From contig NC_092575.1 in NCBI RefSeq assembly GCF_037975245.1, positions 16,826,310 through 16,890,309 on the forward strand: a stretch of 64,000 nt of DNA, read 5' to 3'. The translations under genes and the position numbers were made by a program. Positions 7,646-53,998 of the stretch are shown here, piece by piece. The DNA comes from Apostichopus japonicus. Taxonomy: Eukaryota > Echinodermata > Holothuroidea > Aspidochirotida > Stichopodidae. Position 1 is the stretch's first letter. Each line of letters opens with the position of its first letter. The notes below the pieces were generated by a model. It saw only the letters and a list, made by a program, of their open reading frames with translations, made no database searches and was not told where the DNA came from.

Positions 7646-7955
7646 CAGGCGCGTAGCCAGGAATTTGCCAAGGGAGGGGCGAACCTGTAGGCAAACTATC
7701 AGAGCCGTAGATTCTGTATTGAAAACTATCTAAGCGTAGCGCCACCATAAGTTGGCGCTACGCGTACAAGAAAATTTTGGCTGAAAATGCCTCCCAGATC
7801 GCTGGAAATGGCACTTCCCAGGCCTTGTAAGTTGCATCTAAGCTTGAAATTACCAGCGATATCATAATATAACGTACAAACAAATATGCTCAAGGGGGGG
7901 GGGGCGGTCACCCCCTTCGCCCTCACCCACCCCCCATCCCTTGGCTAAGCGCCTG
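7646..7955. mobile_element. Short non-autonomous hAT-like element (MITE) with target duplication
   Basis: The ends form inverted repeats: CAGGCGCGTAGCCA at 7646 against the reverse complement of tggctaagcgcctg at 7942-7955 (13 of 14 match). The 8 bp on each side are tcccaaca and tcccaacg (7 of 8), an 8-bp target duplication as made by hAT transposases. The 310-bp element has no transposase. Its interior (7724-7838) is a copy of a module found in four other places in the window. Confidence 0.8.
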
Positions 7956-10900
7956 TCCCAACGGATGTGGGGGTGGGTCTTTATGGATGAAACAGAAAGT
8001 GCTTGAGAACCTAAGATCTATATATGACTACTCTCGTAGATTCTAAGAGGACCTACCATCCTTTAAGGCAAAATGACTGACGTATCTGGGATGTCGTTAG
8101 ACCTCCTGTCTATTTTCGAGACCCTTCTCTTAAGCTCACTGGAGATGTTTGGTAAACATTATTGCCTCTGTTTATAGTAAGAGGCCGCAAACCCGATGTA
8201 GAAACTTTTAGACAAAATGATTTATATCTGTGTTGCGTGAAAGCGATGACTTAACGGAGGTGGAAAAAAGTCGGTAAAAGAACCATGTTGCTTCGAAGTT
8301 GTATCAAAAGTTCAAACGATGGAATGTTTAAGGATGCCTTTAGGCAGAATTTAGTTTTGATATGTCATACGGTCGTCCAAGAAAAAAAGAACAGTTTTAG
8401 TGCTAACAAATGTTTTCATTGCTGTTCTGGCTTTCAATTTATTCAGCTGTGATGCTAAATCTCTACAATGCTCCTTTAAGCTTAAAATTGATGATGACGT
8501 CGGCACATCGATGCAGTCCTTTAATGTTAATGTTAACCAATAACTACTTAAATAAATGCTACACAACTCAACCAAAACATGTTCTTTCAATTGTTATAAA
8601 CAAAAAAACAGCAAGATTGATGATCAATTGTTCTGGACAAATATTTAATGCATGCATTGTAAAACACCCATTTGAGGCCATCGAAGTCTTTACGTTTTCC
8701 TGTTGCGTTTTGCAACTGAGGAAGTGGCCTAATTATCGGTGTCTTAAAACAAATTCATGAGCCTCAGATGTTTAAAGGGACACTCTCCTCAAAAATTACA
8801 AGATGTATAGAAATACAACCCGGACTGCTAGTGTTTTTATTTTACATGAATTGCCCATAAAGTCATCTCAGTTTTAAAGTACTGTTTATCTTAGACGATG
8901 GGACAAGGGGATTCGAAAATCAGCAAATCAACAGCTTGATTTTGGTACATTTTTTCGATAAACATGCCTACTTATACGTATTTCAGCCCAATAACTTGAA
9001 ATGTAGTTGATTAGCTTCACTTGCTGAAGTTTCATTTCAGAGTTATGAAGTTAAATTGAAACTATATAAGTTATTTTCCATTGTGTTTAACACTACTATG
9101 AAATGTGTCCAGTTGACGGAAATGTTAAAAAGGAAAATCGAATTAATTATTAAGTTTTAACATTAATTTATTATTAACATTCATTTTGGTGCAGGTTTTC
9201 GCAGTTTCATCTAATGGCAATCTCATTTTTTGAACATAACTTAGAAAAGTTGGGTTAGAAATATTTCACCTGTCTGCTTTAACTGTTACGTGGGTTTATT
9301 TCAATCAGAAGTTCCGTACCATTCTACCTGGTTGTATAAGTACAATTTACATTGTTTATCCATTCTCAGTGTCACGAATGGTTTGCAACGTCAGGGTCCC
9401 ATTACATATTAATTCCGATGGATTGAAGCCTCGATCGGAGTAAAGGCAGGATAGAATCCATGGCTGCAGTGTGGCGCTGGGATCGGAGAAGACCACTCTC
9501 TTGAAGGTGGCTCGGGAATCTTCCACCAGGGGGTGTGAGGGAGGGGGGAGTTGCCACTTGAGGTATATTGAGCCTATAAATTAGGTCTGAGTGCAAGATA
9601 CTATACTTTTAATATCTTCTTGAGGGTTGAGTGTGGGGATGCATACCCACCTAGCCCCCCCCCCACCCTGGAAGGATCGTTCTTCATGTCATGCCTCTGG
9701 GACGGAACAAGAATATTGACAGACATGACCAAACTAAACCTATCAGAACCAATGATGAATTACACATTTTTCATCGGTCTTACTCAACCGTGACTGAAAA
9801 ATATTCATTGGGCCGACAACTTAAAGTCAATGTCGTCTTCCGGGAAAACAAGGTTATCTGACCTTTTTTTTAGAACAAGAGGCAAATTACGGCGATTTAT
9901 TAACTCGACCCTGATTTGCGAGATGTACATTATAGTGGGGTGCAAAGCATATATGTTGTTAGCTTTAGTGTCGTAGCATGCATGAAAAGTTCCAAACCAT
10001 TTATGTTTCGTATATTTTTTACAGACAATGTCGTTGTATAACAGATGATCAGTGAAATTCACTGTTTCTCCATGCACCTTCAAAAGAATTCTGGGGGGGG
10101 GGGGGGTGTTGGTCATTTCAGCCCGTCGGAGACAGGCACGTATCCTGAACAGTGTCGGGATGATCTTTGCGTTCATTAGCCCATCTACTCAATCTACCTT
10201 AATTTGGAATGTAGTGTATAGCTTGCATTTCGTGTTGGCTTGTAATTTTCATCGTTACCGTATGACCCTGTCGTGTTACATAATCACATATGGGTACAGG
10301 AGCCAGGATTATAACAAGAAAAGGTGTGACTCAGAGACGTTGACAAAGACTCCCATGTTGGGGCGGGGGGGGGGTTGGGGGGTTGGGGTGCTCACCCAGA
10401 GAAGTTTGAATGAAATCTTAGACGTGGAAATGGAGCAATAATTAATTTCCAATTGTGTGTGTGTGTAGTGTGTGCTTGACGGGGGAGGTCGTAGGTCCAA
10501 CGTTTAATATATGCTGTGAGTGCAACTACTAATTGTTTTCACCACATTCACTACGATTTGACCTCGGGTCGGTCACCAAAAAAAAAAAAAAATAACCGGA
10601 TGATCGACTGAGAGCATATTGTTACTTCTATGGTAGTATGATACACAGGAAATGTTGTGTCCGGCTACAAAGTTAATTATGTTTAATAGCAAACCATTGA
10701 ATCAATTTATCATCGCAGATTATCTGTCACGATTTGTCTTGTTTTGTTCTGTTTAATTGTTCGTTTAAAGGCAGAGTATCGTTTTCACAAGGTTTTTACA
10801 AATTCAATGCTGTCAATGACGCAACTTGACATTCGTTACCTTTAAATCCATGGATTCACCTTGTCAAAGTTCATGGAATCGGAGTCGTTGTATCACCTTG

Positions 10901-12979
10901 TGGTTAATGCCTATTTTCTTGCCCATTGTCCTAATTGTCCACAGTTTTGACATCCATATGTTGCATTCCTATACAGGGCGTGTCTATCTTACCAAATGAC
11001 AAGTCTTACCAAATGACCATACCAAATGACCAAGGGGCCGGGCCATCTGACAATAGCCACTTGACATGTGTGTGTCATCCCCTTACTCCCTATATAAGTT
11101 TGCCTCTACAGAAGATCAACATGGCAACGTTGTTTGGTCTTTGATAAGTTGACTGTAGAATATCACTGCCTGCAAAATTGCAATAAGATTGATATAAGAA
11201 CGACCCCCCCCCCCCATCATTTTCTTCAACATAGAGAGTCATGTATAGTACAGAGGGAAATACTCTGTGTACGTATATAGAGTTATATTAATATTGGGAA
11301 ATGTGATATAGTGGTGATAAAACGCACGGGTTATTATTTTGTTAGTACAAACCTAGCAGCTCGGCATGTGTGATTGGGCAACTGGGTGGGACAGCACGCT
11401 CTCTCATAGCCGCAAGATGTCGGCTCAACGGGGTGTAGAATTGGCCAGACGGAAAAATTATTTGTCAAATGAATGTTTGCCAAAGTACTGTCGATTTGGC
11501 AATCAAAATGAAGTCAACCAGTACAATATAAAGTAGATTTTTTATTTCCGGTATTTTTTACAATATACGCAAAACGCACTTTCAGATTGAGCATATAGGC
11601 CTATGCGTTAGGATAGGATATATACTATTTGCATACGGGTCCGCATAAAGGCGTACAATGAGATAAGCAGGTTATTTAGGCGTACAACGCCTTATATGTA
11701 GACGTATATAATTATCCTACAGATATAGCATGTATGCCTTCATATATATATAGGCTAGAGCTTTCGTATATGACCTATAGATAGCCTACATGAGGAACTA
11801 ACTGCTGTTCAATACGAATGATCATCACTACAGGGACTAAGGTTACATAACTTTCACTACAGGTGCAGAATTGGGGAAGGAAACTATTATTGTTATTAAT
11901 TAAGTTTTTAACATCTGTAGCTTATGAAATCGGCACTGTTTGAGATCATAAATTAACACTGAATTGTGATTGGAAGGAAGTGTATTATATTGGCTAGGTT
12001 GTTATGAATGCTCTCAATCGTTTTAGGGGTGGGTCGTGGTCGGGAGGAGCGGTCGGGATGGCGCTAAATATAAACGGGAAACCAAATGGAACCATTCCGA
12101 ATTCAAGTGTGCCACATGAGTTAAAAGCAGACAGAATCCGATCGGTTTAGTGTATGTGTATGCGTATGAAGGTGTGTGTGTGCAGCGTTTGTATTTCGTT
12201 CGTTCTCAATTGACAAGTTATATTTTGATCTGCAGATCGCTGTGCAATAGAGTACGTCGACAATCCGTCCTTTTAACGGCTTAATAATAAATGGCGGCGC
12301 CATTGATTTAGCGTTTACTCGGCCAAATCTTCCATCTTGACTTTTCTTTAGCACTAAAATAAGTAACAAACATATTTTTGATCATCGTCAGATTCAAATC
12401 TCCCCTCCCCCTCCCCCTCCCCCTCCCCCTCCTCTCCCCCTCCCCTTCATGCCATCATTGCGATAAGGTACAATGTGTGATATATACCAAGTGATACGAT
12501 ACGGACCTGTCCTACGCATGGAACTGAAGACGTAGTCAAAATCTGTCTTTCAATTGGTTGGGTGCGCTATTTCGACATGACGTTGTCTTAGCTGTAACTT
12601 TCCGGAATGACAAAGGACAGGTACGGTATGTCATTTATAATGCTAAGCGTTAGACACATTTTGCCTGCTCGCGCTGCGGAATATTCTTGTTTCACCCAGG
12701 ATTTTCTAAAATGCCTTAAATCACCTTCAATCCTCCAGATTTATAGACCATTAGTAGCTTATTTCGTTCCCTTTAACATCCAAGCAAAAAAAAAAAAAGA
12801 ATAACGATGACTCAGAAATTGTACAAAACAAATCAACACAGTAGGTGGTCACTTAGGGGCTATGTTTCAACAATGGTTAGAACCTTTGAGGCGGACGGTG
12901 CACTTGATTCAAATTGTGGTGCGATACCTAGTCTCAGAGGGACACAAAAGTATACAGCAGACAATGTTCAGGGGCAGAG
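7956..12979. other. Intergenic; no supported gene
   Basis: No coding exon could be supported. A plus-strand frame at 8410-8760 and frames at 9805-10441 have no recognisable similarity. The stretch holds numerous C/G homopolymers and a TG-rich run near 10455. Confidence 0.5.
12401..12446. repeat. (CCCCTC)n microsatellite
   Basis: About seven repeats of a ctcccc hexamer, interrupted once, in an otherwise AT-rich interval. Confidence 0.9.
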
Positions 12980-16020: not shown

Positions 16021-16024
16021 ATTC

Positions 16025-22500: not shown

Positions 22501-25500
22501 CGGAACAGGTGGAAGATAATTTCTGTTTCGAATGCAGATCGCAAGAGGTGAGAAGACGGCTTTCTTGAAAATTATTGACACAATTTTAAAGATTGTCTGA
22601 TGAAATGACTAATTTCTTGAACTCTGTTGACAGTGTACTGTCTGATTGCTTGCTTATTAACCTTTCTACTACCTGAATACTTAATAAATATACCTTGTAT
22701 TAATTCTTAACCACCTCCCCTCTCCCCCCCCCCCCACCTCTCTGTTCCTACCAGGACTCTCCAACATAGAAAAATCAAAACTAGTTGTTGCACACTCATT
22801 GTGATTCATTGAGTTAATATATGATTGTATTGAAAGTTAATCAAACCGTTGATAAACGATAAAATCATGAACCAAAAAGGTCTAAATTTTCATAATTTTT
22901 CATTGTTTCCTTTTGTATTTTGTATAAAATTTGTTGATTCTTCCTCTATAGTTGTAAAATTCTGATAAGAGTGGTTTATAGTATCTGTAGAGATATTTGC
23001 CACTTTTTTTAACTAAAACCAATTCTGTTTTCCCCTGTTTCTGTCTGTGTCCCTAGAACTTATGGATTTGCCTGGTATGTGGTCATATTGGCTGTGGTAG
23101 GTATGTTGAGACTCATGCATTCAGACATTTTGAGGAAACCCAGCACACGTATGCCATGCAGCTGGGCAATCATAGAGTCTGGGATTATGCAGGCGGTAAG
23201 TGTATGCTGTAAGGAAATATCAACAGTATTGCTAGTCACTATACTGTTTTTTTTTCCTTTGCAAAAAGCCTGAAAGATGGAAATGTCATGTAGAGAGATA
23301 AATTATTGAACTAGACAGTATTGGACTGAACAGTACTGGACTGACCAGTACTGGACAGAACAGTACTGGACAGAACAGTACTGGACAGAACAGTACTGGA
23401 CTGAACAGTACTGAACAGTATTGGTCTGAAAAGTACAGCACTGGACTGAACAGTACTGGACTGAAAAGTACTGGACTGAACAGTACTGGGCTGAACAGTA
23501 CTGGACTGAACAGAACAGCACAGGACTGAACATGACCCACTTGTAAGAGTTTGCCTAAAAATAAATTATCTTTAGACCTTTCATTGTTAGATTTCTATGG
23601 TAGAAGCTTTGGACCTTAACGCACCATAAATCCCACCCATCTAACAGACTTTAATTCATGTTTTTCTGTAACTAAACTTTATCCGTAAAACACTTTTCAT
23701 GATCTACACCCACGAAATGGACCTGTTATTGTTTACATCTCTGTCATAATGAACAAATTTATGAATGTTAGGCAATACTTCCACCCCCTAAAATGGTCAC
23801 CATTATTATGATTATATTATCATTATTTATATACATAATAAAGTAAACTGTATGTACATGCAATGATAGCATAAACTTACCATGCACTTAATGTGAAGGT
23901 GTGTTCCGTAAGGATTGGTCGGTGTGTTTTCAAGAAACATAGCAGACCAGGGTGGTACTTGTTAACAAACTGTCTTAATTAGCAAAATTAGTCTTTTGAT
24001 TTAACTATATTGCAGGAAATTTGGTAAGCAAAGAATATCTTTGCTTACCCTTTATCACCTAAAATAAGCATTCTATGCCATGGATATGCTATTATTACCT
24101 GTACTTTATATTAACAGACCCTTCCCACGACTAATAGAGTAATAAATGTATGCCATGCCCAAGTATTAGATTACGAGTCGAACGTATGAGGGAGGTATTT
24201 GTTAAATCTTGAATCCTGTTTATATATTTAACGACATATGCATACTTATAGCAAAGACCGCACCCTCTGAAACAGGCCATGTGCTAAATTTATCTTGTTT
24301 TTGTTGACAGATAACTATGTTCACAGACTTGTTCAAAACAAGGCAGATGGAAAACCAGTTGAGATGAATAATGGAAGCACGGTGGCACAGGATGAGAAAA
24401 TGGATTCCATCACGTTAGAGGTAGGAAATATTCTTAGAGAACTTTAAGAAATATTTCAAATAATATTAACTTTAATGTTGATCTACTCTCTTTGTGATTT
24501 TTCCACAGTAATGTTACATTGAAAAATCATTTCAAACAACTTCAGAAATGATGAGGGGGGGGGGGGGGGGGGGTGCTTTACCAATTTTGACCCATTTTTT
24601 AATTGGAATGGAAAACCCAGCAGAACAGAATAAGAAGAAACTGCCAGTTGCATCGTAAGAAGTTGCAAATCTCTTCACATTCTTCCTGTTGTTCATAAAT
24701 CTACATTAAGATACATACATATTAGACACTTATATAGCGCTGCTACATCGAGATCGTAGCGCTTTACAACTTAGCCTTGGTCATTGGTAACTTGTCACAC
24801 CTACACACCAAAGTGTGCGCAATTCAATCAATCTCTTTTGGGGCACCACAGTGCACCACAACCATATGTCCCCCGGGGGACTTCCCATAGGGTGCAGCCA
24901 CAAACCGGCGCACGCAACTATATTTACAAGTTACCTCGCAGGTCCCCATTTATACACCTGGGTGAAGAGAGGCAATGGAGATAAAGCACCTTGCCCAAGG
25001 ACACAACGCAATGATCTGGCCAGGGCTCGAACCTGTAATCCTTAGATCACCAGTCCACTGCCTTAACCACTTGACCACAATGCCCCCAGCCTATAAGAGA
25101 CAGTAGTTTCATTTCATCCTCCAGGAAACCTTTCAACTCCTTTGACTTTCAGTGTATGTGTGTTGGAGAAGTGGAGATTGAAGAGGGTGGTGGGGGGGGG
25201 GGGAGGTAGGATGGGGGAAGTATTGAACCCTAAGAGTGCAAGTGTTGGACACAATTCAGAAAGTAGCTGTCAGGTAGGGAGCTGAAGAGGTTGCACCAGA
25301 TTACCTTTGGTGCATCATATTTTCTACATATTTAATAAAAATATAGATATTTATAATTTTATATTTTAATGCCGGGTAATACTAGTATAATATCTGCTTC
25401 TTTTTTAGTTCAATTATTTACTGTCCAGCCAGTTGGATTCTCAGAGGAAGTACTTCGAACAGAAGATAGCAAGAGTGGAGGAAGATGCCCTTGTCAGGGT

Positions 25501-33700: not shown

Positions 33701-36700
33701 AAAAAATATGACTATGGAGCCTTACCACATTTTAAGTCCTTATTACAGAGGTATTTATAAAGGCCACTGTACTGCTGTTTTGCTTGAAAAAGATACAGAT
33801 TTTCTTCCATATTAAAATTTTGTTTGTGGCACGGTGCCACTATGGTTAAACTTGCCCCTTTAATCCGTTGAGCAGATTCACTCTTTGCAACTGACTACTT
33901 CAGATGTGATCCAATCAAAGCTCCGAAAGCTAACTATATATCTTAATGTAATCGATGATTCCCAATTAATTTTCGTTGACACATTGGACAGTTGTGTAAA
34001 GAGTGTTCAGCATCGGCCAAAACTGAGCAGGAAATTGTTACTCTGAGAGGTTTTCAAGTAAGGTAGTAGGCGAAACCTATCCAGTGTAGTACAATGCATA
34101 AGTCGTGATGGATATTAAAGGACCGTACAACTCATAAATTTTGAGGTTAGGAAGATCACTGCTTTTTGCATGGGGAGGGTTGGGGATATGTTAAATTGCA
34201 ACTAAAATGATCGATGGTGCTTACTTGTAATATTCTTCGTTGGACTGGTTTTCCTGTTTCGATATGTGATAAGGCACCAAGAAGGGGCACTGTTGGTGGA
34301 AGTTAGCCAGTATCAGGTCGCCTACATCAGGGTATTTACACCACAAGCCTACTGCCAATGTAGCAAAAGGAAAGGCACTCTCATAATTGGACGATACCTG
34401 CTCGTGACCTTGTTTCTGTGGATCGGAAAGACAACAGTTTGGATGTTATAAGGTCATCTTCCGCAACCAACATGTCAAATAGTGAAACCATCACTGAGAG
34501 GAGTCGGGAACAGCAAGAGGTCAGCTGGATCACTGAGATATAAACAAAGGAGGTACTGAAGGAACACGAGGGAGATGAAGCAATGGTGTACAGAATGTAT
34601 ATTGACTCAAAAGAATGCGGATGCCCCCCCTGACGGACTCAAATGGGACTGCTGGCGGCCTTTTCAGCTTTTTACCACTTCTTACTTATTCGCGATTATT
34701 GACTTTTTCATTGCACTCTCATCTACCTATTGACTAATTTGTCGCATTATCTGCCATTGGATACAATGATGTGGACAATGACTGACTTGGATGTCAAAAT
34801 GGTCATTGGACATGATGATGCTCAACCGTATACATTCCACTGGCCTCATAAGATAGGGATGTGTCGTAACAATCGATGGCAAAGGAAGCCTCACACTCAA
34901 TAGCCTTTAAGTTTGAGAATACTTAAATCAAAACTTAAGTCATAGTTCATTCTTTGTTGTATGTAACGTCATCATGTCAGTCTTACTGTTGATGGTACTT
35001 GTATGGTTGCTCCTTGGAATTTCCAATTTCTTAACGTCAAGACTAGACAATGTTTCCACAGAGTACATTAACCTTGTCTCGGGGGGGGGGGGCGGGGGAG
35101 GGGTGGTCCAAGTAGGTTAGTGACACCTATCCTGTACCTGTATAGTACAATAGATAAGTTGTAATTGGAAATAACATATAAGAGTAAGACTCTCTAGGGC
35201 AAAATATATTGCAAAATCTTCCATAATCTGATAATTCTAACAGTGTCGGTTGTCTGTGAAAATGCTTATAATGACTAATTTCAGACTACAATTCTGAACC
35301 AGTGAATGCTAAAGGGGGACTCCCTGACAAAGGAATGAGATTTGGGGAGGGGTTAGGGGTGAGACCAATGCTAAGTGTTGCCTATAGGGGCACAAACCCT
35401 GTATGAAAATCATTATTCTGATGCCGATGGTTGGTAGGGGTCCCCTTCCCCTCCCAGTCAGAACTCACCACCAGCTTCTTAGCTAGAAGGTCTTTACAAA
35501 ATGCCATGCCAGCTGGATGAGTTGCAGCAGATACCATCTTTGATCCAGCCTCCACTGACTGTCCGTCTAACAGTTGCTGGAGCCTGCGTAGCTTGTCCAT
35601 GAAATGGGAGCCAGACTGGGATGAAATTGCGTTGATGGGTGTGTTGATGGCCTTCTGAATGTCAAAACAGTACTTCTTTAGCTACGAAAGGAAAGCAGTC
35701 AAATGAAAAGAAGAAAACGCATTTAAAATAAAAAAGATTTTTTTTCTTTTTTAAATATTTTTTACATACATTAACAGCAGGCAATGAAAAAAATCACTGA
35801 CCAGGGTTAAAAACTGTTAAAAGCTTAACAATACTGCACTTTACTATTTATAAAAAATAAATTGCAATATAATGTAATGTATGGTCCATGAAGATGACAC
35901 ACTAGTATAGATTTCAAAGGAATACTAGATTATCCAGCTTCTGTTTTCTGACTAGGGAAACTTCCAGACCAGGACAATCTAGCTTTTTACTGTATGGTAT
36001 ATGTCTAGGTAAACCCACAAAATAAGCCTAAGGTACAAAGACCATTGGAGATTTGTGTCTAGGGTACTCTCATGGTATGTATCATGGGAGACTGTCTGTT
36101 AAACTCAAGTGTGACTAACTTTATCGTTTTGTTATTGCCATGGAAACCGTAACCGTAGCAATTTTGTGGGTGTTTAAGCTTCAGTACTTCACCACTGACA
36201 TTGGATATTCTCTATCTCTTTTAATTTTAAGGTAACTTTTCGATAAGTTTGATTGCCAACATCCACACACAGATTTCCACACTTCATGAATATTCATAGG
36301 AAGAAAACAATACCCTATTTCTTTTCTATTCTTTAAACTTTGCCAACGAAATATTCTTCACATTAGAAATGATCACAAAGTTTCTGCCTAATCGTATGAA
36401 ATGAGACTTGACTTCAGATTAACTGTTCTGTTATGCGACTTAAAGTGTCCAATCGTGCCAAAAACTTGGTACCCATATCAAACAATTTACATGCCGCAAT
36501 TTATCTCTTTTTTTTTAAATTAAATTCCATAAAGAAGTTCTTCTTTACATACACGTGCCAATTACCCTACATTACATACTAGTCTGTAAAGGTATGGTGA
36601 TAAGCTGAACGTTCACTCACCTCCTTATTTTTCGACTGTTTCAGTTCCAGGAAAGCTTTGCGAACATTTCCTAGATTCTCCTGTAGCTTGTTGTATTCTT

Positions 36701-39700
36701 GAAGACTGTCTGGTTGGGCAGACTCATTCAGGACACCTATGAATGCCGAACATAATCATAGGTGCTAGTAGCATGCTTTGTAGTCACATAGATATCACAT
36801 TAAAATATCTACAAAAGGACCGCCGCACCAATTGCTTGCAGGCATACTACCTCAATAAACATCCTGAAAACTATTTTTTAGCTATTTGACATTAAAAAGA
36901 AAAAAAATTACAAAGGCAACTTAAGGCAAACATTTTGTGATTTATCCAACAGGAAGGAGAACATATTGACCACAACATCAATCTGTATCAAGTTTCATTT
37001 TAACAGATATTTCTTTAAATTTATGTTAAATATAGCAAGCAACTGGAGTGAAGTTGAAGTGAATTTGAAGTTTGCAATTCGATAATACAGCTTTCTGTTC
37101 TCGACTTGTTTCTGTCTAGATTTTGAAGTTTTTTTATTGTTTCAATTAGACATTTTTTATTTGGTGGTTGGGTGTTTGGACTTTAACCTAGGAACATACA
37201 TACATTCAGAGGGCGGGGCACAAAAGACCACACACCTTTGATATTTGAGGAGTTAGCTGCTATGCTAGACTAGGAACATACATTCAGAGTGTGGGGAAGC
37301 AAGAGACCACACACCTTTGATATTTGAGGAGTAAGCTGCTATGCTAGAGGAGGAACATACATTCAGAGGGCAGGGAAGCAAGAGACCACACACCTTTGAT
37401 ATTTGAGGAGTTAGCTGCTACGCTAGAGGAGGAACATACATTCAGAGGGCGGGGAAGCAAGAGACCACACACCTTTGATATTTGAGGAGTTAGCTGCTAT
37501 GCTAGACGAGCCAAGGCTACTTGCCATCAATACTGAACTCTTTGTAGCAGCAGCAGCAGCAGCTTTTGTAGCTTCTTCTTTAGCTTTTGCTGCCAATACC
37601 TTTCGCTCCTCAGCAGCAAGAAGCCCTGCTTTCTCTGCCTCAGCTAGATAGAAATGATGGAAAGAAAAAACCAAAACGATTGTCCTCATAGGTTGGATTT
37701 ATCAAGGATGATAGAGATTCCATCGGAATCGAAATATCAATGAGCAAAAGGAAAAACGGTGATGTATACAATCCCGGCGAAGTGCCTTCACATCAACCGA
37801 CATTCTTTAGCTATTGTACCAAGCTAAACGAAAAGTTTGTAAACAACACCGACCGTCGCCACGTATGACAAAGAAAACTCCCATGTGTATAGCACATGTA
37901 AAGGGCAAACCATTTTACACATTTAATTCCCGTTGGTATTGGTTGTTGCCGACAATCGGCTTACGATTGAAACAGGCATCAAGTTCAACAACAAGCTGCC
38001 AATGTTACCGACCTTTGAACACATCTATGATAAACCATTAATAATCTTATTGGGGTAATTCTTGCCAACTTACCCCGGTTTATGATTGTTCTAATTTGTC
38101 AGCATTTCTTTGCCAGGCATATGTCATCACCATCATAATTTTTTTTTATTATCACCATTATTATTTCATTATTGTTATTACTACTAATATTTTTTTTTAT
38201 TTAATCTTGTATTCTTTGAGGGAAAATCATATTTATAATGATTTCAATATGTACAGAAAAAAATGTTTTGAAAGCTTTGTTAACTCATTGGAGGAAAGAA
38301 TGATATTAATAGTCAGTTTTTGCACGCACAGTATAGCTTCCCCAATATTCAACAGAAAATATTATAATTTGAAACAAAAGGTAGAGAAAAAGTCATACAT
38401 AAAAATATAGTATAATTTGGGTAATGATTTCTTAAGACACTTTACTTCCTTTTATTTATTCCTCCATTTTGTCAATAAAAGAGGTCACAAGATGGCAACA
38501 TTCTTTTTCTTGTCTTTCCTTGTCTTTCATTTTAAATTGTTCAAAGCTTTTGTCTGTAATTCTGTTGTTAATTGACAATAGCAATCTGGTCTTTGTTTGT
38601 AAAAACAGAGCAAATCAAACACCTCTTGCTAATACAAAGGTTGTTTGCAGCAATTCTTCTGCTATAATAAGCCCCTCTGCCTCAGATGCAACAACTCCAT
38701 TTTAGATCACACAACAACAATATCAATAATAACAACAACAACAACAGCACAATGAGAAAGGATTCAGCAATGTCTAAAACTGACCAATTGCATGGCTGGA
38801 TAGGTTATTAATATCCATTAACTTCTGTATCAGGACTGTCATGACGTGGAATGGTTCCTCCGATGGCTTGGAACCTTGGGCGTTAACCACTACTTGATCT
38901 GACGGGGGATTAAACGATGAGAAATGATATTAACCAGACATGACTGCATTAATCGTCAAACAATATTGTGGTACCATACCCCACCACTTTAGGTAAAGGG
39001 ACAGGCACCTGGAAACAAAACCTGTTACTTTCAAGCAAGGACACAATTATCCGGTATTCGCTTCATGTGTGAAAAAAATTAAAAATTGATCAGATTGCCT
39101 TCACAAGTGCAAACTAGACATTTCTACGCTAAATATTTGGAAAATTATCTATAAAAGCTTACTCTTAAAATGTGCGACCAAAGGCTTCTTTTTCCTCATT
39201 TGGAAACACATGCTTCATTAAATGGAGTTTAACAGTGATAAAGATCTTCTATTAAATCACATTAAACAATTCAAATAACACTTTTACATATTTGCAGTAG
39301 ATAAGTACAATGAGATGATGAAAAATGTTTTCAATAAACTTTTAAAAATTCTTTTTTTTGTAAAATATCACAAACCAGATTTTGCCTGCAGTCGCTTGAT
39401 CACCGCCTTGATTTCGTTTCCTTTCGGTGCGAGTTGCTCCTGATGAGGGCAGGCTTCTAAAGCTTCTATCATCCTTGTAGCTTGTTCATCAATCTGACCT
39501 CTCACCTTTACTAAACTATCCAAGAATGACTTCAGTTCAGCTTGCTTTCTGTATGAGATATAAAACGATATATTTAAATTAAATACCGCATGTTCGTAAA
39601 TCGTCTCGCAAAAGCCATGATTTGCTAAATTTTACTAAACTGACATTATTTATTACTTCAAAATCAACATTTCTTTGACCAGACTGTGAAGTGTGTACAT

Positions 39701-42700
39701 TGCTAGAAAGTTATCAGATTATGCAACAATTGGTAGATAGGAGTGCAAAAATATGACAGGTGTGTTGTCAGACTAGTAGACATAAGTGAAGTACATACAC
39801 AACTTCCCATATTCCAACAATTTAATCATAAAAATAATCAAGCAGTTACTTGTATGACGCTTAAGCGACCACACCGGGCGGCTTCCAAATCAACATTTTA
39901 ACTCAAATTTGGGATCTTTTCAATTTAGAAAGCTATTTCAGATGGGAATATCGTAGATTGCTCTTGGATGAAAAACCCACCTCACTATGACTCGGCAGTG
40001 GATTGAACCCAGAAATGCCACCGCCTTCATCCACTCAGCCACAGCACCAATATGTGTTAACATGGTATGTGTTAGTTAATATGGTATGTGTTAATATGTG
40101 TTAAAGTCTCAATACCTGTTTGCTGATGAATTTCGAAAAACAAACTTCCTAAGTAGATTCAATGTTTCTTAGTCAAAATGCACTCCGACCAGGTGGGTTT
40201 AATGGAGAAATGCTGTCGCAATCGAAAGAAAGAAATTTATTTTCTGTTGCCCTCGTGGCGCAAACAATTTACTATAAAATCACTGCGACCGCCCATATCA
40301 GCATGTAAATCACACAAATGTAAACGAAATAGTCTACACTTGCGACCGGATCAAGATTTTAACGCAGTCCTATACTCGTTTCGTCCACTTTTTTTTACCC
40401 AATTCCACCACAGACGTCCATCACAGACGTCTGAAAACACCTGTTGATTCATTGCAATGGAAGGAAATGACACAATTTTGCAAGCTACATCAGTAAGACA
40501 GAGAGAAAGATACTATTCAACAGAAGGGACCTTACACAGGACAGCCACAAAAATGACAGTAGTGTTAGGCCTAACGGTCGTAAACAAAACAGAGAGATTT
40601 GATTGGCGTATTATCTCTTGGGCGGGGCTTGACAATTTTGATTGAAGTTTGTAGAATCTACGGACTCGCTAATAAATCTGACGCATTTTATTGAGCTCAA
40701 AATGTTTAAAAACAGATAACTCAATAAAAATATGGAATATTGTTATGAAAATTGCATAGAATGGTGTCAGTTTCACTGAGCTATTAGTAACTAGTATTAA
40801 GTCTGGAAATGGTCCAAGTTAAAATTTGGCAAGCAAGTACTGAAACTTTAATATGTTAATATTGACCTAGCAGCATATATGACATTATTAAAGTTACTTC
40901 TGTGCAAACATTTCTTAGAAATTATATTAGTTCAAAATGCCATGATAAACAACAAAAACTATTGGAATATTAGTTTTTTTTTCTTTTTTTTTTCCAATGG
41001 TCAAAATTGTCACCTGCTTCGAAACATGTGGGAAATATTAGTCACCCAGTTCAAATATACTGCACTGCTGCAGGTATGGGTTGTACAAATGCCTATCTCA
41101 CTAAGTAGTGTACAGACTTTAACAACATGTGTAACTGCACAAACTTGCTTGCATGCGTCATAAAGCAGACTTTTCATATCACAGCGTTACAGAGATAACT
41201 TTCACATGTACAGTGTAGACTATAGATATCAGTGGCAGAGAAACAGGGGGGGTTGGGGGGGGTTTTTAACCCCCCACTTTTTGAAGAGGGGGGTTGGCCC
41301 ACACAATCAACCCCCCTTGTTTTTGCCAGTAATGTTCTTTTATAGCCTATGTTATGTGTTCCAAATGGCATAATAAATCAAATTATTAAATTTGAAATTG
41401 TTAAAGTCATTTCAACCTTTTACCTGGTAGGCTACATCAACAATTAACGACCGAAAACCGAGTTAGAATTGACCCACACATTATTTCTAGCCCCTTTCCC
41501 CACCTTGCCCATTGGAACTTGTAGCTCATTGCGCTAACTTCACCCCACAACAGACATACACAAAATAACGTTTTGTTGCTGTTGAATAGCTTTGGAACTG
41601 TATACACTTACCAACTTCAACAAGGTGAAGGAAGGAAAAGAAAAAGAAGAAAGAAAGAAAAGGAGAAAAGGATGGAGTAGAAAATACGGCAAGAAAACGG
41701 GAAGAGAAAGAGGAACAGCGACAAAATTATTCGAATTTGTAAAGCAAACAGCAGATATCACATCATATCAGTGAGCTTGAAAATGGCGTTCCACGATAAA
41801 CAGCCTCCAAACCATGGGCGCAGATCCTGGTGAGGACAGCGGGACGCGTCCCCACCAACTTTTTTAGTAGTGGGGACATGATATACTGTGGCCCCACCAA
41901 TTTGTCTTGACCAATAGCTGCATTTCAAGTTCCCCTGTATTGAACTTTAGCGCAGTTTGATCCAGCATCGTGCAAATCACATGCAGCAGTTCTCATTTTA
42001 TTGTATTTTATCCACAGTTGATAAATATAGGACGGAAATCGCATTTGCGGCAGTCTACCTGTATATTTGTTTTCTGGGAGAGGACCCCAGACCCATCGTA
42101 TATACAAAAGTCTACTTGGATTATTTGTCCCTGATTTTCTTTCTGCAGACGCCCATGTATTTCTCCAAACTAAATTTCTAAGCCATGAGATCTAAAACTT
42201 AAGGAGGTTTAGGAGCATCATTAGGTCTGGGAAGTGTTATTTCCGGCGATCTGGGAGGATTTTGCCCAAAAAATCGTACGCTACGCGCGAACCCATGGTC
42301 TCGCTCCGCTTAGATAGTGTCATAGAACAGACACGCGTCCCCACCATTATCCAAGACTGATCTGCGCCCGTGCTCAAAACTGTCGATGTGTGTAGTGTTC
42401 GGTTTCGGAAATATCTGGTATATTTTTATTTCCTTCAACGAAATTTTTTAGTAGCTCTCTGAATTTTCGAAAATTCCCTAACCAACATTCTTCATCATAC
42501 TTCATCATACTCGTGCAACTTTGACCCGTCTGTTAGGGTTTGAAGGAGGTTTTTCTATATCGGTTGTCCATAGATGATATTTTGTGCAACATTATGGGTA
42601 TGTTTTGAAGTGAATTTATTCACGAGAATTGTGAATTTTCAAATTCTGAACAGTGGGGCTGACGGATATTGTGGGCCGAGATGAAGAATCACCTACAAAA

Positions 42701-45700
42701 GCAATGATCCACAGGATATGTGATGAAGTCGAACATGATGTGTGACTGGTGACAATCTTCAAAAAGGTTATAGATGAGAAAAAAGTATTTGGAAAAATCT
42801 TGGTTCTCAGGCAAAAGTGTACATATGGTTGGTCAGTTTCAAGCCCGAGAAGTGGCATTTCCGGTGATCTGGGGGTACCAAAACCAGAAATTTGCTTGTA
42901 CGCTGCGCGCCAACCAATGGTGGCGCTCCGCTTAGATAGTAATACGCGCCCCCCGGGTTAGAAAATCCTGCATACGCCCCTGGTTAAATGCAGCTTTTCA
43001 AGGCCTGGGCAGTGCCATTTACTGCAATCTGGGAGGCAATATTTGCCAAAAAATTCTTGTGCACTTCGCCCCAACTTATGGTGGCGCTCCACTTAGATAG
43101 TGAGCCAGCAGTTATGACTTGTTATTTCATCAATGGCCTGCAACCCCCCCACTTCTGACAAGAAATCTCCGCCACTGATAGATATCCAGAAAGTCAAAAT
43201 TGTTACACCTTTTCTGTTTTTCCATCTCGGCAAGTTCTTTTTGCTGAAGGGCTGCTTTCATCTTAGCATCTAGTTTCTGAAAACAAAAACCGAAAAGAAA
43301 TGTTGAGATCTTCAAAGAACTGTCGACTACGGTACACAGAGGAGAAGAGCAACGAACCGCAGCCATGCAGAAAATAGAGAAACATTAATAAATTTGAACT
43401 TGGGGGAATTTTGGCCCTTAAAAGTGTATTGGCAACTTACTTCTGCCCTACCCAACGCAACCCAGCCATCTCTTAAACATAAAACAAGAAAGAGGAAACT
43501 ATCAAACCAACCAAACTGAAGTGTCAATGATCACTGTCATTATGACTTTGAATCCCTGTTTGAGTCCAGCCATAGGCTTACATTGTCCTTTCTATGACTC
43601 TCATTTTCCAGTTTTTACGTTGGTTTATGTTCATCCTTAGTCATCTCGGTAAAAAATCAGAAGCTCTTCCTTATCGTATAAGAAATAAAAGACGTGACAA
43701 GGCAAGGTTAACAAACTGTTTCTGTGATTTCAGTATTGGATTAAATTCTCACAGTCAAAAGTGCAGTAGTGTCACTTTAAAAAGAGATAACCCCCCCCCC
43801 CCCGGCCCCCTTCCTCACAACCCTCACCTACCTTTTCAGCTCAACATCAGGTCAGAGCAGTTAACCATCCTTATATAGTCTAGAGTTCACTGATGGGAGC
43901 AGGCAAATAGTTATCAAGTGTCCTGAGGCATCCAAAATCTGCATTTCCTGTGATACCAACCCCTTTTTCCTGCCAAACTCCCCTTAAACTCATCACATCT
44001 CTAAACCGTTACACAAACCTTCAGATGAAGACGGTGTCTCTCCTGTTGGTGAAGCAGACGCCTCTCCCGGTTCTCTTCACTCTCCGTGTTGACATCGTTG
44101 ATTTTTTGCCAGTGCGCCCTCTGCCTGAGCTCCATACGCTGCTGGACTAGGCTGATGTTTTGTCTCGCATCTTGTTCTAACTGCTGTGAAAACTCTGCAT
44201 GCTGCTTTTTCCTGACCTCCACTCTATCCTTTTTCAGGATAAAAAATCCATTAAAATTACAACTAGATCCATAGAGGTATAACTAGTAAGGCTTTGCAGA
44301 GATAGTAATCAGGACTGGGGTTTATATTCTCATGAACTTTTCAGGTGAATTACTGGCTTATATTCACCATTCTGAACAAAAGCAAGACTTTTATATAAAG
44401 TTGATACAGAAAGCAATGCTAGTAACTGCATAGAATTTTATGGAAATGGAATGTGGCTATGAAATAGTAGCCGACTCCTTCAGACCATACAGCTGCTATA
44501 TATTCTACTTGGATGGGCAAATTTCCACAAAAGTAATCTGATGGGGGACTAAAATTATATTATTAGGTACCATGTTTGTAACACAAAAAAAAACAGGTTT
44601 TAAACAGGTACATATGATCACGTTTTCAAAATGTTGGTGATTTACTTTCAGGTTCACTTAAGAATACCAATCATGAAACAAATGGCTGGCTGTTAAGAGC
44701 TTTAGATTCACATTTTTAATGACATGATGTGTTACAAGCAACTTCTTCCACTCCCAGTGGGCAAACGTTTGAAGCACGATACTGTCATGTCCAACTTCAA
44801 AGCACTAGTACTGACAGTATAAACAGTATGGATGATAATGGGCAGCTATCCTGTTCTATCAGATAAAATTTTGGAACTGTTCATATTGTCAGCATAAGTG
44901 CTTTGAAGGAGGATAGGGGAGGACAGTATCTAGTATGTATGTATGTATGTATTTTAGATCCTCCTGCAAGCAGAAACTCGCAAAGAAGCCTCATTGGCTT
45001 ATCAAAGCCGCAAGCTGACCAAAGTCAGTCTCTTACATTCGTATTTCACGTCCATGATTATGAATGTCAATTGTCAACAACTCTGTAACTGGACCACATA
45101 CATTAATCTTGGAGTAACTCGAATTTGGAGTGAATCTAGTGATATAAGAAGCATTCAGAAATTCCCCCAACCGGCTGGTAACTGTACTTTAGATTTGCAC
45201 GTTGCATATTCATGATCAATCCTTACCTTTGCTTCTCTAGTTATTTCTACTTCATGTAAATGTAAAGCTACTTGTATTTTGGCAGCATTCTTGTCTAAAG
45301 CACAATTCAAATCATCATTGTAGGAAGACTTTGATCTGTCGGTAATAAGAGGAATAAAACAGCCAATTACTTGAGCCATTGTGAAACAGAGATAGATGTA
45401 TCAGATATCATTCTTCTTTTCTATTTAAATTTCATATTTCCTTTTTAAATTTCATACAATAGTTAGTAAAGCTGTAACAGAAATGGCACTTTATCTCAGA
45501 AACTGGTGTGTGTTAAAATTAATCAATTACAGTGTGGGCAAATTTGAAGGTGTCATTTAACTGTTTTTTTTTAACTTAAAAAGTGAGTGGTTATCACTTA
45601 ACTTTTCAACATATTTAAATACTATTACTTGATAACATTCATTAACGAAGCTCAATAGTTAAAAGTGAAACTTCCGACTACTATTGTTTAGAACTCATTC

Positions 45701-49600: not shown

Positions 49601-49764
49601 TAATGATAGTTTTGCTGTTTCATCGTACAATAGGAAACTGAACGTGCTAAACAAACGCGTATCACGGTCTTGCTTTCTTTTCTTTGCTTTCTTGTTTACT
49701 GGATTTTTGCTATTTTCAAAAACACCTTTACGGGAAACGCCTGGTGTTAAAATTGGAATAAAAT
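46650..49764. other. GLE1 upstream region and intergenic DNA
   Basis: No coding exon is supported. Non-coding 5' exons of GLE1 or of the CUB gene may lie here. A G run near 48230 and a short tract of ordinary AT-rich DNA are the only notable features. Confidence 0.5.
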
Positions 49765-49834
49765 ATGAGTTTAATCTTGGAATATACGTTTACTTTACTT
49801 TTCATCGTAACGGTCAAAGTTTTACATATTTGTG
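49765..49834 (+). CDS. CUB gene exon 1: signal peptide
   Basis: 23 codons of hydrophobic leader ending VLHIC; A at -3 of the ATG; donor gtaagt in phase 1, matching the phase-1 acceptor of the first CUB exon. Confidence 0.8.
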
Positions 49835-52010
49835 GTAAGTATAGTTCTATTTGCAAATCAACATGAATCCAAACTCAACTTAATAGTATAGAACTATGTG
49901 AATATGTGCAGTTAAGGGGAACTCGGGCGAAAATCTGAATTTTTACTAACTTGCAATTGGCCTACTTATGTGTAGTATCTGTTCCCTTTCGAGGGGAATG
50001 GTGATGCACACCTGACCACGATCACACAGTCACAGTCCCGATGCAAGGGGACTGGGGTTGGAAGCGGGTCAGTCGTTCGGTAGTTTGGTTTTCGTGCCCA
50101 GGTTCTTTCCTGGGCGACTTTTTCTTAAAAAGTATTTGCAATAGGCCTACTTATACTAATCATGAGAATAATCAAGGAATGCTGTCTTAGGAAATATATT
50201 GCAAATTTTCGGTCGCCCAGGGACCTTCGTCAGCAACGCTAGACAATGGAATGAGAAATACAAAATGTAACACAATGAAAGTATGACGCTATAATTATGT
50301 ATGAGTGGTATTGCTGGAATTAAAACCAAATAAACCATGACTATATATATATACAGGAAGCGGATTAAGGAACAAAGAATCTGTAACTACACGTAAACGA
50401 AAAGAAATCGATTGGATCTTTGTATCACCAGCCTCACCAAAAGACTTGGGACCCCCTTAAGCAACTACCAGTTCCATAAAGAAAGTTCCATAAACATATC
50501 TTAATATATAACATAAGTAAATATTTATGCCATATTGCTACTGGTTTATTACCTTCACTAATTAGTTCTAAATCTGTTTGTGTAGTAAATGCCTGTTTCG
50601 GGGTCTCTTTAAACAGCTGCGACATGCAGTCATGAAGTATTTACGCAAGACCAGAGTATTATTACCTCACCAAACTTTCCAATGCCATACGATGACGACA
50701 CATCGTGTACCTATTTGATTCGTGCTCCGCAAGGAAAAATAGTGCGACTCTCATTTCTATACATTGACATCGAGCGTGCTTTTGGCTGTGTTTACGATGC
50801 TTTACAGGTGAGAAATGAAAATGCAAACATACAATACTTATAGAGACCTAGAGTTCCGTCAATAAAGTGACTGAACTTCTTACTGTATAGGCTTTACATT
50901 ATTAGGACACCACCTGAAAAGTACAAAAAAACTGGCAGGGAAATCATAAACTTCATTTAAAAGAGCAGTGGGAAAAAAAAAGACTTTTGTCCAAAACTGA
51001 GTTAGAGTATTAATGCAGTACTATATATTGATAAAGAAAATCAATGAAGTGAACTGACCTCCTGTTTTATAACGTTGTTTTTAATGTCTGCCTTTGTTTT
51101 CTTCTCATATTTATATAATTATGCTATCAAAGTAATTGAAAGTTCAAGAATCGAAATCTATAAAGCAAGCCTACCACCATAACAACAACAACAACAAAAG
51201 TATATTATCCAGTTCTCTCAAAGAATTGTGTATATTAAAATGTTTCATCCTGTAATATTTTCCCGAATTTATATAGGTTTTCGACGGCGATTCGGAAGAT
51301 GGATTGTTGCTTGCCTGGGTTTGTGGATCCGATGTGACGCACACTCCAATCTACAGCTCAAACAGAAAAATGTTTCTGAAATTTGATACTGATTCAATGA
51401 CTTCGAACAGTGCAGGCTTTCAACTACAAGCTGATTTCCTTACCGATGGACCAGATTGTGAGTATATTCACAAAGTCCACGGTGCTGGTTGCGTCACTAT
51501 GAAGTATGAAACAGATTTGAGTACGCGTATATGCACGTTCTCTAGTATAGCTACATATGTACTCGTGTATACAACCTATTTTAGATTTGTACTCGGTCTG
51601 GCGGAAATACATAGAGCAAGATTAAGTTTAACCGTGAACTTGCCGGGAAAGTGGATCCAGGGGTGTATGCACAAGGGGGCACGGGACATCTCGGTTTGGT
51701 GAAGTAACAACAAAGGCGGTCTCTTTCATAAATTTCAAGTACCCGTGTTTAGTGGTAACTAATAAAAGGCCCCTTTTTGCCATGTTGCTGAAAAAGATTA
51801 GAGAAAAAGAAATTAAAATGTGCTCTTTTGTTGGAAACATTCATATTCCACGAATATACTGGCATACTTGTGGTACGGCATTCTCTGAGGATCCATTTAA
51901 TTGCAAGGTTTTGAGGTAACTGTGGCAATTTTTGTTCTACTCAAAGTCAAATGTCATCCTGCCCCTCAATGGACCCACGATCCTGCCCCCCCCCCACACC
52001 CGGCGGATCT

Positions 52011-52058
<48 letters not shown>

Positions 52059-53477
52059 TATATATATGTGTGTGTATATATATACTCCGATACCCGTAAG
52101 TATTCCAATGGAAATTCCACTTGTCCTCATATACTGCAGCTGTTGTTTTCGTACTGCATGTCAGTCGTTTATGACGAGAATGTTCCATTTAAAATTCATA
52201 TCAAGTTGTATTTTTCACAATGATTCTTGGTTGCGTATGCATAACGTATATAAAAAAGGAGGGGGGTAAGGGCAAGCACGTGGTGTCTTAATTAAGGCGT
52301 CAGAATTGTCGCATATACGTCATTGCTCCTATATATCATGTTCATACCCGTCTTTTGCAGTCACGGCTTGCGACGACATTACCATCACTACAGACGGTAC
52401 GGTACTTACCTCGCCGGATTATCCTGGTTCATACGGAGCTAATTTGGATTGTGTCTACAATGTAATTGCGCCACAAGGAATGATCGTTGCCCTAAACTTT
52501 AGTCACTTCAGCGTTGAATATCATACAAGTTGCTTCTTTGATCGACTTTTGGTAAGTCAAAATATCTAAAGTAATGAAAATATCACACGTGAATTGTATC
52601 CCGTATATTCAAGGCCCCGACAATGTAGGGCCTATAGGGAGGCAGTTTGAGCAATCATTGAAATATAGCCAGATTCTTATAACCCTCACCCTCCCTCCCT
52701 CCCCTTCAATCTTCAATCACAGGACAATGCACTGGTATTCTAATGACAGGAAGTTTACGAATTGAGGCAAGATCCGTCACGTTTTGTAGCCCTAATACTA
52801 ATCTTTGAGTATTCTCCACTTTATTTTGCCTCAAACTTTCCCTCCCTTTCCTTCCCCTAAATATGCGATGTTTTCTATTTCTTCTCTTCTTTGTTAATTC
52901 GCATCTACAAGAATCCAGACAGGTTTTCTACCACGTATACAAAGTTGAGAGTTAAAAACGCTGGATCCCGTTCCAAAGTAAATGCCATAGTGTAGATGAT
53001 TCAGGCTATCAAAATGTAAAGGTAAATCCCTGCAGTGTCACACAATATGTTGTACATTGAACTATATATGAACCTATTCATTGTACCGTATAGGCCTACA
53101 ACAGTTCTTCGAGATGTATATAGATACTGACAGGGTCGAGCTCTCCCCTCCCATCCTCATACCCCACCCCCACCCCTACCCCGTCCCTCTTCCATATACA
53201 ATTATTCACGCAAATGTTTCATTTTCTTCTCTGTAAAAAGGTATATGATGGAGCCACTACTTCTCATCCTCAATTGCTTAGAATATGTGGCACTGGAATC
53301 CCTAATAAAATATACAGCACAACCAACCTCCTGACGGTTCGATTTCAAAGTGACGATACGTACACTGATGCAGGTTTCCGTGCTTACGTTAGTTTCATTG
53401 CCGAGTCAGATGCTGCAGCTAATGAAAATGATGGTATGTATAACGATCATTATTACATTTATTTCACGCTGGTTTAG
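49765..53477 (+). CDS. Secreted protein with signal peptide and two CUB domains
   Basis: CDS exons: 49765-49834, 50617-50807, 51277-51457, 52361-52551, 53241-53433 (or to the in-frame stop at 53477). Exon 1 encodes a classic signal peptide (MSLILEYTFTLLFIVTVKVL). CUB1 (about residues 27-146) begins with a Cys and shows TSPNFPMPYDDDTSCTYLI and KMFLKFDTDSM. CUB2 (about 150-265) shows LTSPDYPGSYGANLDCVYNV and LLTVRFQSDDT. Each CUB has four cysteines and is split by a central phase-0 intron with phase-1 edges. If exon 5 reads through, the protein has 289 aa and ends MYNDHYYIYFTLV, with AATAAA at 54070. If the gtatgt donor at 53434 is used, the gene continues, possibly into the EGF exons downstream. 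Role unknown; CUB domains bind proteins and glycans outside the cell. Confidence 0.85.
50207..50233 (-). ncRNA. Hammerhead-like core in a dispersed repeat (CUB gene intron 1)
   Basis: The minus strand reads CTGACGA, then aggtccctgggcgacc (ggtc can pair with gacc), then GAAA: an exact hammerhead core, CUGANGA with stem II and GAAA. The adjacent 35 bp match the copy at 2302-2365. It is likely a Penelope-like terminal remnant. Confidence 0.45.
50617..50807 (+). CDS. CUB gene exon 2: first half of CUB1
   Basis: Encodes ATCSHEVFTQDQSIITSPNF then PYDDDTSCTYLIRAPQGKIV. Enters in phase 1 and leaves in phase 0. Confidence 0.9.
51277..51457 (+). CDS. CUB gene exon 3: second half of CUB1
   Basis: Encodes VFDGDSEDGLLLAWVCGSDV then NSAGFQLQADFLTDGPD, the typical CUB ending. 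Leaves in phase 1 at gtgagt. Confidence 0.92.
52013..52084. repeat. (TA)n microsatellite with a short (TG)n core
   Basis: About 70 bp of alternating TA, interrupted by gata and tgtgtg, in the intron between the two CUB domains. Confidence 0.95.
52361..52551 (+). CDS. CUB gene exon 4: first half of CUB2
   Basis: Encodes TACDDITITTDGTVLTSPDY then GANLDCVYNVIAPQGMIVAL. Same length (191 nt) and phases as exon 2, as expected for a duplicated module. Confidence 0.93.
53241..53433 (+). CDS. CUB gene exon 5: second half of CUB2
   Basis: Encodes VYDGATTSHPQLLRICGTGI then TVRFQSDDTYTDAGFRAYVS. The donor gtatgt follows in phase 1; otherwise translation runs 14 codons further to a stop at 53477. Confidence 0.9.
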
Positions 53478-53624
53478 TGTCACAATGAATACATTGAGAA
53501 CAAGTCCGAGTGAACCATCTAGGGTAAAGATAAATGTTCTCGCTTCAGCCAAATATGGAGATCGTTGGTGATATGATCCTTATATTCTTAAGGAGTCCCT
53601 GCATGGATGGTAAACACTAAAACA

Positions 53625-53998
53625 CAGTGGCGGAGCTAGGGGTATTGGCCAGGGGGTCGAGAATGGTCTGTATAGGGCGCGTTCGACGCTATCTAAGCGG
53701 AGCGCCACCACAGGTTGGCGCGGAACGTACAGAAATTTTTTGAGTAAAGATACTCCCTAGATCGCCGGAAATTACCCTTTCCGGGCCTTGCTAATTTGCA
53801 GATAAAAGAAGAATAAATAGGTGTCATTGCCAACAAAATGTGACAAATGTCAATAGGTAGATGAGAGCGCAATAAAAAAAGTCAATAATCGCGAGTAAGT
53901 AAAAAGTGGTAAAAAGCTGAAAAGGGCGCCAGCAGTCCATTTGAGTCCGTCAGGCCTGGGAGCATCCGCCCCCTGACTGTATGGACGCTCCGCCACTG
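53625..53998. mobile_element. 374-bp hAT-like MITE
   Basis: Perfect 12-bp terminal inverted repeats CAGTGGCGGAGC / gctccgccactg. The 8 bp on each side, ctaaaaca and ggtaaaca, share only their last five bases, a decayed or absent duplication. The left part (53687-53792) is the shared module in minus orientation; the right part reappears at 34609-34765. Confidence 0.85.

What the first reader, a model, noticed from the sequence alone, without database searches (positions are those of the whole stretch)
7724..53792. One 100-bp module shared by four hAT-like elements with different ends
Near-identical blocks (ggcctgg.aagtgccatttcc, gatctgggagg, and tggtggcgctccgcttagat) occur at 7724-7838 (minus), 42222-42319, 42840-42940, 42998-43102 (plus) and 53687-53792 (minus). 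They are inside elements whose terminal repeats differ (CAGGCGCG, CATGGGCG, CAGTGGCr). One internal core appears to have been captured by, or recombined among, several MITE families, and in one element it is present twice. The module may carry something useful to the elements, such as a transposase-binding or replication-prone motif.
Basis: partly seen in the sequence, partly recalled or inferred. Interest (0 to 1): 0.7.

Follow-up and report, generated by a model that had tools for sequence, protein, structure and literature searches.

The report
Shared 100-bp block in hAT mini-transposons
Five small, decayed jumping genes in this stretch of an animal-like genome share one 100-letter non-coding block next to the same one of their two ends, which looks more like an inherited part of that end than a piece captured separately by unrelated elements.

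Summary
The elements are non-autonomous hAT-type transposons. A blind search for 8-bp target duplications plus terminal repeats found three elements in 64 kb (0 of 60 simulated windows gave three), and all three carry the block. A fourth (E) has hAT-like ends but a weak duplication. A fifth (C) shows one end only.

Two corrections. The block is not "twice in one element": elements B and C lie inside the 1.95-kb element D, so three copies are stacked by nesting. And the block's place is not random: all five copies lie 41-79 bp from one terminus, in the same orientation. The ends do differ (TIRs 37% different between elements, 12.5% within), but are variants of one hAT-like scheme. The module-bearing right ends resemble each other somewhat more than the left ends do.

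Best reading: an inherited, conserved part of the right subterminal region of one hAT lineage, probably cis-acting, while bodies and left ends were replaced. Coral CMITEs are a published parallel. Function is untested; genome-wide clustering was impossible (no genome held).

The parts
7646..7955 (-). Element A, 310 bp, hAT-type; TIR CAGGCGCGTAGCCA/CAGGCGCTTAGCCA (13/14), TSD TCCCAACA/TCCCAACG (7/8)
   Evidence: blind scan; sequence
7725..7829 (-). Module copy A; 79 bp from the element's module-side terminus
41230..43177 (+). Element D, 1948 bp including nested B and C; TIR CAGTGGCAGAG/CAGTGGCGGAG (11/14 over 14 bp), TSD ATAGATAT twice (8/8)
41813..42372 (+). Element B, 560 bp, nested in D; TIR CAYGGGCGCAGATC (13/14), TSD CTCCAAAC/CTCAAAAC (7/8)
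42220..42319 (+). Module copy B; 53 bp from B's right terminus
42839..42982 (+). Element C, right part only: module copy C (42839-42941) and right end CAGGGGCGTATGCAGG (reverse complement) at 42982; putative right TSD GTTAAATG; left end not found
42998..43102 (+). Module copy D; 75 bp from D's right terminus; C's right end lies 15 bp upstream
53625..53998 (-). Element E, 374 bp; TIR CAGTGGCGGAG (12/14 over 14 bp); TSD weak, CTAAAACA/GGTAAACA (5/8)
53687..53791 (-). Module copy E; 62 bp from the module-side terminus
42333..42340 (+). ACGCGTCC box between module and right end of B; same box at 42944 (+) in C and 53682 (-) in E; palindromic form at 41842-41851 in B's left end
   Evidence: these five hits (both strands) are all in the window
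34617..34769 (+). Fragment of the body of an E-like element (89.7% over 136 columns for 34617-34748; a looser alignment reaches 34769), without TIR, TSD or module

Best explanation
The five copies are parts of decayed, non-autonomous hAT-type transposons of one broad lineage. The ~100-bp module is an ancestral, conserved part of the right subterminal region, inherited with that end. Bodies and left ends were replaced, and the TIRs drifted together as matched pairs. Most likely (inferred) the module persisted because it helps the element move, as a subterminal binding or assembly region for hAT transposase or a host factor, used on one side only. Shown: location, orientation, nesting of B (and of C's right end) in D, TSDs of A, B, D, TIRs of A, B, D, E, lack of a conserved reading frame. 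Inferred: common descent of the right end, and cis-function.
For: Blind TSD+TIR scan finds 3 elements, all with the module; 60 simulated windows gave 0 (46), 1 (13) or 2 (1) hits (first run with 5 simulations). Five of five copies are 41-79 bp from one terminus in one orientation; for the four elements with both ends the chance is about 1e-4 under uniform placement, with the cut-off chosen after seeing the data. Right ends over 45 bp: mean z 2.73 (10 pairs), against 0.85 for left-left (6 pairs) and 1.25 for left-right between elements (16 pairs). The ACGCGYCC box occurs only 3' of modules B, C, E and in B's left end. A and D share 82% over 118 columns including sequence upstream of the core. 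14-bp TIRs match best within their own element (rank 1 of 24 pairings). No conserved reading frame: variable gap-free columns by position 20/20/15, length changes of 1-3 nt, a stop in 13 of 15 frame translations; no ORF of 100 aa or more in any element; no Pfam family at cut-off for two module translations. hAT transposases (Herves, Ac, Tol2, Tag1) bind subterminal motifs, often with differences between the two ends (PMC3143072, passages and Discussion read).
Against: Between module and TIR the sequences do not align beyond chance once the last 14 bp are removed (all 10 pairs z 1.3 or less; a 15-45 bp comparison gives right-right mean z 1.16, against 0.25 with sd 1.04 for G-rich background pairs). 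A simple master element drifting neutrally should have kept that stretch alignable. D-right and E-left match better than any right-right pair (z 6.4), so the right-left contrast is not clean. Over 45 bp the true left-right pairing ranks only 2 of 24, and 4 of 24 without the TIR. E's ends are weak taken alone: they are one of 135 end pairs with at most 2 TIR mismatches within 3 kb; 6 of the 135, E included, have a duplication of 5/8 or better, and three of those are neither A, B nor E. Only five copies from one window; no autonomous partner or transposase seen. Known hAT binding motifs are short repeats, not a 100-bp block.
Confidence: 0.6

Rival explanations
1. Capture and spread: an unrelated sequence (host DNA or another mobile element, such as a SINE conserved domain) was taken up once by a hAT mini-element and then moved between families with different ends by nested insertion, recombination or template switching.
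For: Module is sharply bounded and far more alike than its surroundings; TIRs differ more than modules; nesting of B and C inside D shows how ends could be re-paired. Published parallels: V domain of a SINE carried by the MER6 MITE (PMC6887750, abstract and passages) and the unexplained internal region of coral CMITEs (PMC2872659).
Against: Same side, orientation and 41-79 bp distance in 5 of 5; right ends somewhat more alike than left ends; no free-standing copy of the module in 64 kb; no Rfam match at gathering score.
Confidence: 0.22
2. Plain old-family remnant: five ancient subfamilies of one hAT family kept a recognisable stretch by chance and mutation-rate variation; the module has no function.
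For: Copies are old (TSD mismatches 5 of 32 positions, or 2 of 24 if E's doubtful duplication is left out; TIR left-right mismatches 7 of 56); all ends fit one loose hAT-like scheme; the TIR-versus-module difference is only modestly significant (3.0% of random samples; 12 of 82 contiguous blocks).
Against: If within-element decay is roughly 8-16%, modules in the source elements differed by only about 10-15% while tails and bodies were already unalignable; uniform neutral decay does not give that contrast (inference).
Confidence: 0.15
3. The module is a structured RNA or DNA hairpin (replication-prone motif), selected for its fold.
For: Two dyads, GGAA...TTCC and GCGCCAACC...GGTGGCGC; copy A folds far better than shuffles (z -4.7 DNA, -5.3 RNA) and copy E somewhat as DNA (-2.6); 3 of 18 tested pairs change on both sides (22 of 500 shuffles reach this).
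Against: As RNA on the module strand the other four copies give z -0.9 to +0.5, and on the opposite strand -1.7 to +1.0; as DNA B, C and D give +0.2 to -1.1. In the long hairpin 3 of 11 pairs form in only one or two of the five copies. RNAalifold finds 2 of 28 pairs with changes on both sides and an unfavourable covariation term (+0.76).
Confidence: 0.03

Closest known systems
CMITE elements of Acropora corals (PMC2872659; abstract, first of four parts of the text, first of two parts of Results, and Discussion read)
   Same: Several MITE families with different TIRs share an internal region that is more conserved between families than the TIRs; origin of the region unknown; a role in transposition proposed there.
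   Different: CMITEs are piggyBac-type (TTAA target duplication), about 100 bp, and the conserved 75 bp is most of the element. Here: hAT-type, 8-bp duplications, 310-1948 bp, block near one end only, bodies not alignable.
hAT elements with subterminal transposase sites that differ between ends (Herves, Ac, Tol2, Tag1; PMC3143072, passages and Discussion read)
   Same: Cis-acting sequence inside the TIR, with differences between the two ends; in Herves within the first ~90 bp.
   Different: Known sites are short repeated motifs; here a non-repetitive ~100-bp block beginning 41-79 bp from the terminus; no binding data.
MER6 MITE with the SINE V domain (PMC6887750, abstract and passages read)
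   Same: A conserved non-coding domain (~120 bp) carried inside a DNA mini-transposon.

Membership tests
hAT superfamily (non-autonomous) | 8-bp target site duplication | tested here: met
   A 7/8, B 7/8, D 8/8; E only 5/8; C left side not found
hAT superfamily (non-autonomous) | Short TIRs beginning CA (typical CAGNG-type consensus, recalled) | tested here: met
   14-bp TIRs matched 13, 13, 11, 12 of 14 in A, B, D, E; the CA[GT]NGGCG motif alone is not enriched in the window (6 found, 4.4 expected)
hAT superfamily (non-autonomous) | Mobilised by a hAT transposase / related autonomous element | not testable with these tools
   no genome held; no ORF of 100 aa or more in the elements
MITE | Short, non-coding, with TIR and TSD, high copy number | tested here: inconclusive
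   size and lack of long ORFs met for A, B, E; D is 1948 bp with nested insertions; copy number could not be measured
CMITE-like organisation | Internal block more conserved between families than TIRs | tested here: met
   24.1% against 37.1% difference; five copies only, modest significance
CMITE (piggyBac) family proper | TTAA target duplication | tested here: not met
   8-bp duplications that are not TTAA
SINE highly conserved domain | Sequence match to a named domain (V, CORE, Deu and others) | not tested
   no domain sequences available; Rfam gives no match at gathering score
Protein-coding remnant of hAT transposase | Conserved reading frame | tested here: not met
   no codon periodicity on gap-free columns, a stop in 13 of 15 frame translations; no Pfam family at cut-off for two module translations

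The most novel reading that the evidence does not exclude
The module plus right end is a portable cis-acting cassette for hAT mini-transposons. It is kept while bodies, left ends and TIR variants are exchanged (nesting of one carrier in another supplies new end pairs), so that elements with different ends stay mobilisable. This would be the hAT counterpart of the conserved region in coral CMITEs and of conserved domains in SINEs.
Probability: 0.3. Interest if true: 0.55.

Novelty: new member of a known kind. Interest (0 to 1): 0.35.

Why it matters
MITE families are normally defined by their ends. If a subterminal block is better conserved than the ends across families, it points to a cis requirement that could be tested in an excision assay, and it would tie elements with different TIRs to one source. 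If it is only a remnant, it is routine repeat annotation, useful for merging several hAT families of this genome.

Tried and rejected
Coding origin: rejected; the codon-position count used gap-free columns, so its register is approximate. Known RNA family: none at gathering score in the whole window; with a loose threshold, run only on 41200-43200, six sub-threshold matches (E 0.28-3.4), all in the G-rich left end of D. tRNA: none. RNA/DNA structure as the main reason for conservation: not supported beyond copy A, and weakly E. Copies elsewhere: a 17-base exact pattern hit one viral contig and two prokaryote contigs, but the profile matched these three places only over 17-29 model positions at 8-12 bits, taken as chance; four further patterns in viral contigs found nothing. 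These collections are not meant to hold animal genomes, so absence there says little. Literature: module strings in full text, 0 papers; eight topical searches gave CMITE, Herves and MER6 as the three papers that I opened. Left end of C: no convincing TSD+TIR candidate within 6 kb, local alignment weak. TIR motif alone: CA[GT]NGGCG occurs 6 times against 4.4 expected, so the motif by itself is no evidence; the TSD+TIR pairing is. Second end-like site in B at 42157: no matching left end; left unexplained. In one search the left end of A was taken one base too far out (7956 for 7955), which spoils A's left-end rows there; searches use the right boundary. Repbase and Dfam were not available, so whether these families are already catalogued is unknown.
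Full report
What was checked. The five blocks named in the finding were read, aligned (50 of 159 columns invariant although flanks were included) and searched for again with a profile made from them. Five copies were found and no more: A 7725-7829 (-), B 42220-42319 (+), C 42839-42941 (+), D 42998-43102 (+), E 53687-53791 (-). All 10 pairs score z 11.7-17.4 against dinucleotide shuffles. Mean pairwise difference in the core is 24.1%, range 16.8-29.0%.

The elements. Without using the module or any TIR motif, I scanned the window for an 8-bp duplication (at most 1 mismatch), CA...TG and 14-bp inverted ends (at most 3 mismatches), 80 bp to 3 kb. Three elements were found: A 7646-7955, B 41813-42372 and D 41230-43177. 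Of 60 windows simulated from the same dinucleotide frequencies, 46 gave none, 13 gave one, one gave two (an earlier run of 5 gave 0, 0, 0, 1, 1). All three elements carry the module. E therefore rests on its CAGTGGCGGAG ends, the same type as D's, not on the duplication. C has a hAT-like right end at 42982; its left end was not found. No ORF of 100 aa or more lies in any of the elements. They are best described as non-autonomous hAT-type elements; the link of CAGNG-type ends to hAT is recalled, the 8-bp duplication is measured.

Nesting. B lies wholly inside D with its own duplication, and C's right end lies 15 bp before D's own module. Three of the five copies are thus stacked inside one 1.95-kb element. 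This replaces the statement that one element holds the module twice.

Position. The distance from the module's 3' edge to the nearer terminus is 79 (A), 53 (B), 41 (C), 75 (D) and 62 bp (E), always in the same orientation. For A, B, D and E uniform placement gives about 9e-4, or 1e-4 with orientation (cut-off 79 bp; 78 bp); the cut-off was chosen after seeing the data.

Ends. Between-element TIR difference is 37.1%, within-element 7 of 56 (12.5%); duplications mismatch at 5 of 32 positions, or 2 of 24 without E. True left-right pairing of the 14-bp TIRs scores best of all 24 pairings, but over 45 bp it ranks 2 of 24 and without the TIR 4 of 24. Over 45 bp, right ends resemble each other (mean z 2.73, 10 pairs) more than left ends do (0.85, 6 pairs) or left-right pairs between elements (1.25, 16 pairs); but one left-right pair (D right, E left) is the best of all at 6.4, and without the TIR the right-right mean drops to 1.16 against a background of 0.25 with sd 1.04. 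An ACGCGYCC box follows the modules of B, C and E within 2-13 bp and occurs otherwise only as a palindrome in B's left end. Beyond these signals, tails and bodies are not alignable: module-to-TIR tails without the last 14 bp give z 1.3 or less for all 10 pairs, with the TIR up to 3.3 (A-C).

What follows. If 8-16% is the decay since insertion, the modules of the source elements differed by about 10-15%, while their tails and bodies were already unrelated (inference from few positions). That contrast asks for either constraint on the module or its later spread. Fixed side, orientation and distance, and the faint likeness of the right ends, favour an inherited right-end unit over independent capture; the data do not settle it.

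Function. The module shows no conserved reading frame (a stop in 13 of 15 frame translations; no Pfam family at cut-off for the two translations tested) and no Rfam family at gathering score. Conserved columns are mildly clustered (p 0.027). It holds two dyads, but only copy A folds clearly better than shuffles as RNA, and A and to a lesser degree E as DNA; three of 18 tested pairs change on both sides, and RNAalifold's covariation term is unfavourable. hAT transposases bind subterminal motifs, often with differences between the two ends (PMC3143072), so a one-sided transposase or host-factor region is the most likely role. This is inference; nothing here measures binding.

Known parallels. 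Coral CMITEs (PMC2872659) show the same odd pattern in piggyBac-type elements, and the authors left its cause open. The MER6 MITE carries a SINE domain (PMC6887750), which shows that capture of such a domain is possible. So the general phenomenon is known; this would be a hAT example with a one-sided block. Whether Repbase already lists these families could not be checked.

Limits. One window, five copies, no genome held. The host is taken to be a eukaryote because of a CUB-domain coding stretch and the make-up of the window; its species was not determined.

Noticed in passing
34617-34769: 89.7% copy (136 columns) of the body of element E (53837-53969) without TIR, TSD or module: a truncated relative, or a source of E's body.
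   Followed up: partly
44941-45123 and 57717-57896: Another dispersed repeat pair, 91.8% identical over 184 columns; sequence near 57884-57905 looks like a tRNA B-box on the other strand (by eye, recalled motif), so perhaps a SINE; ARAGORN finds no tRNA.
   Followed up: partly
23315-23513 and 25734-26576: Two minisatellites (15-bp and 95-bp periods) match each other in opposite orientation at 64-76% identity.
   Followed up: no
37198-37510: 79-bp tandem repeat, four copies, 93% matches.
   Followed up: no
42157-42170: Inside B, a second CATGGGCG-type end on the minus strand at 42157; the 8-mer of B's left duplication (CTCCAAAC) recurs just after it at 42163-42170; chance or an older insertion.
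   Followed up: partly
51310-51426 and 53244-53432: CUB-domain coding sequence: the second is clear (Pfam E 1.9e-8), the first below cut-off (E 0.057); element E begins about 190 bp after the second.
   Followed up: partly
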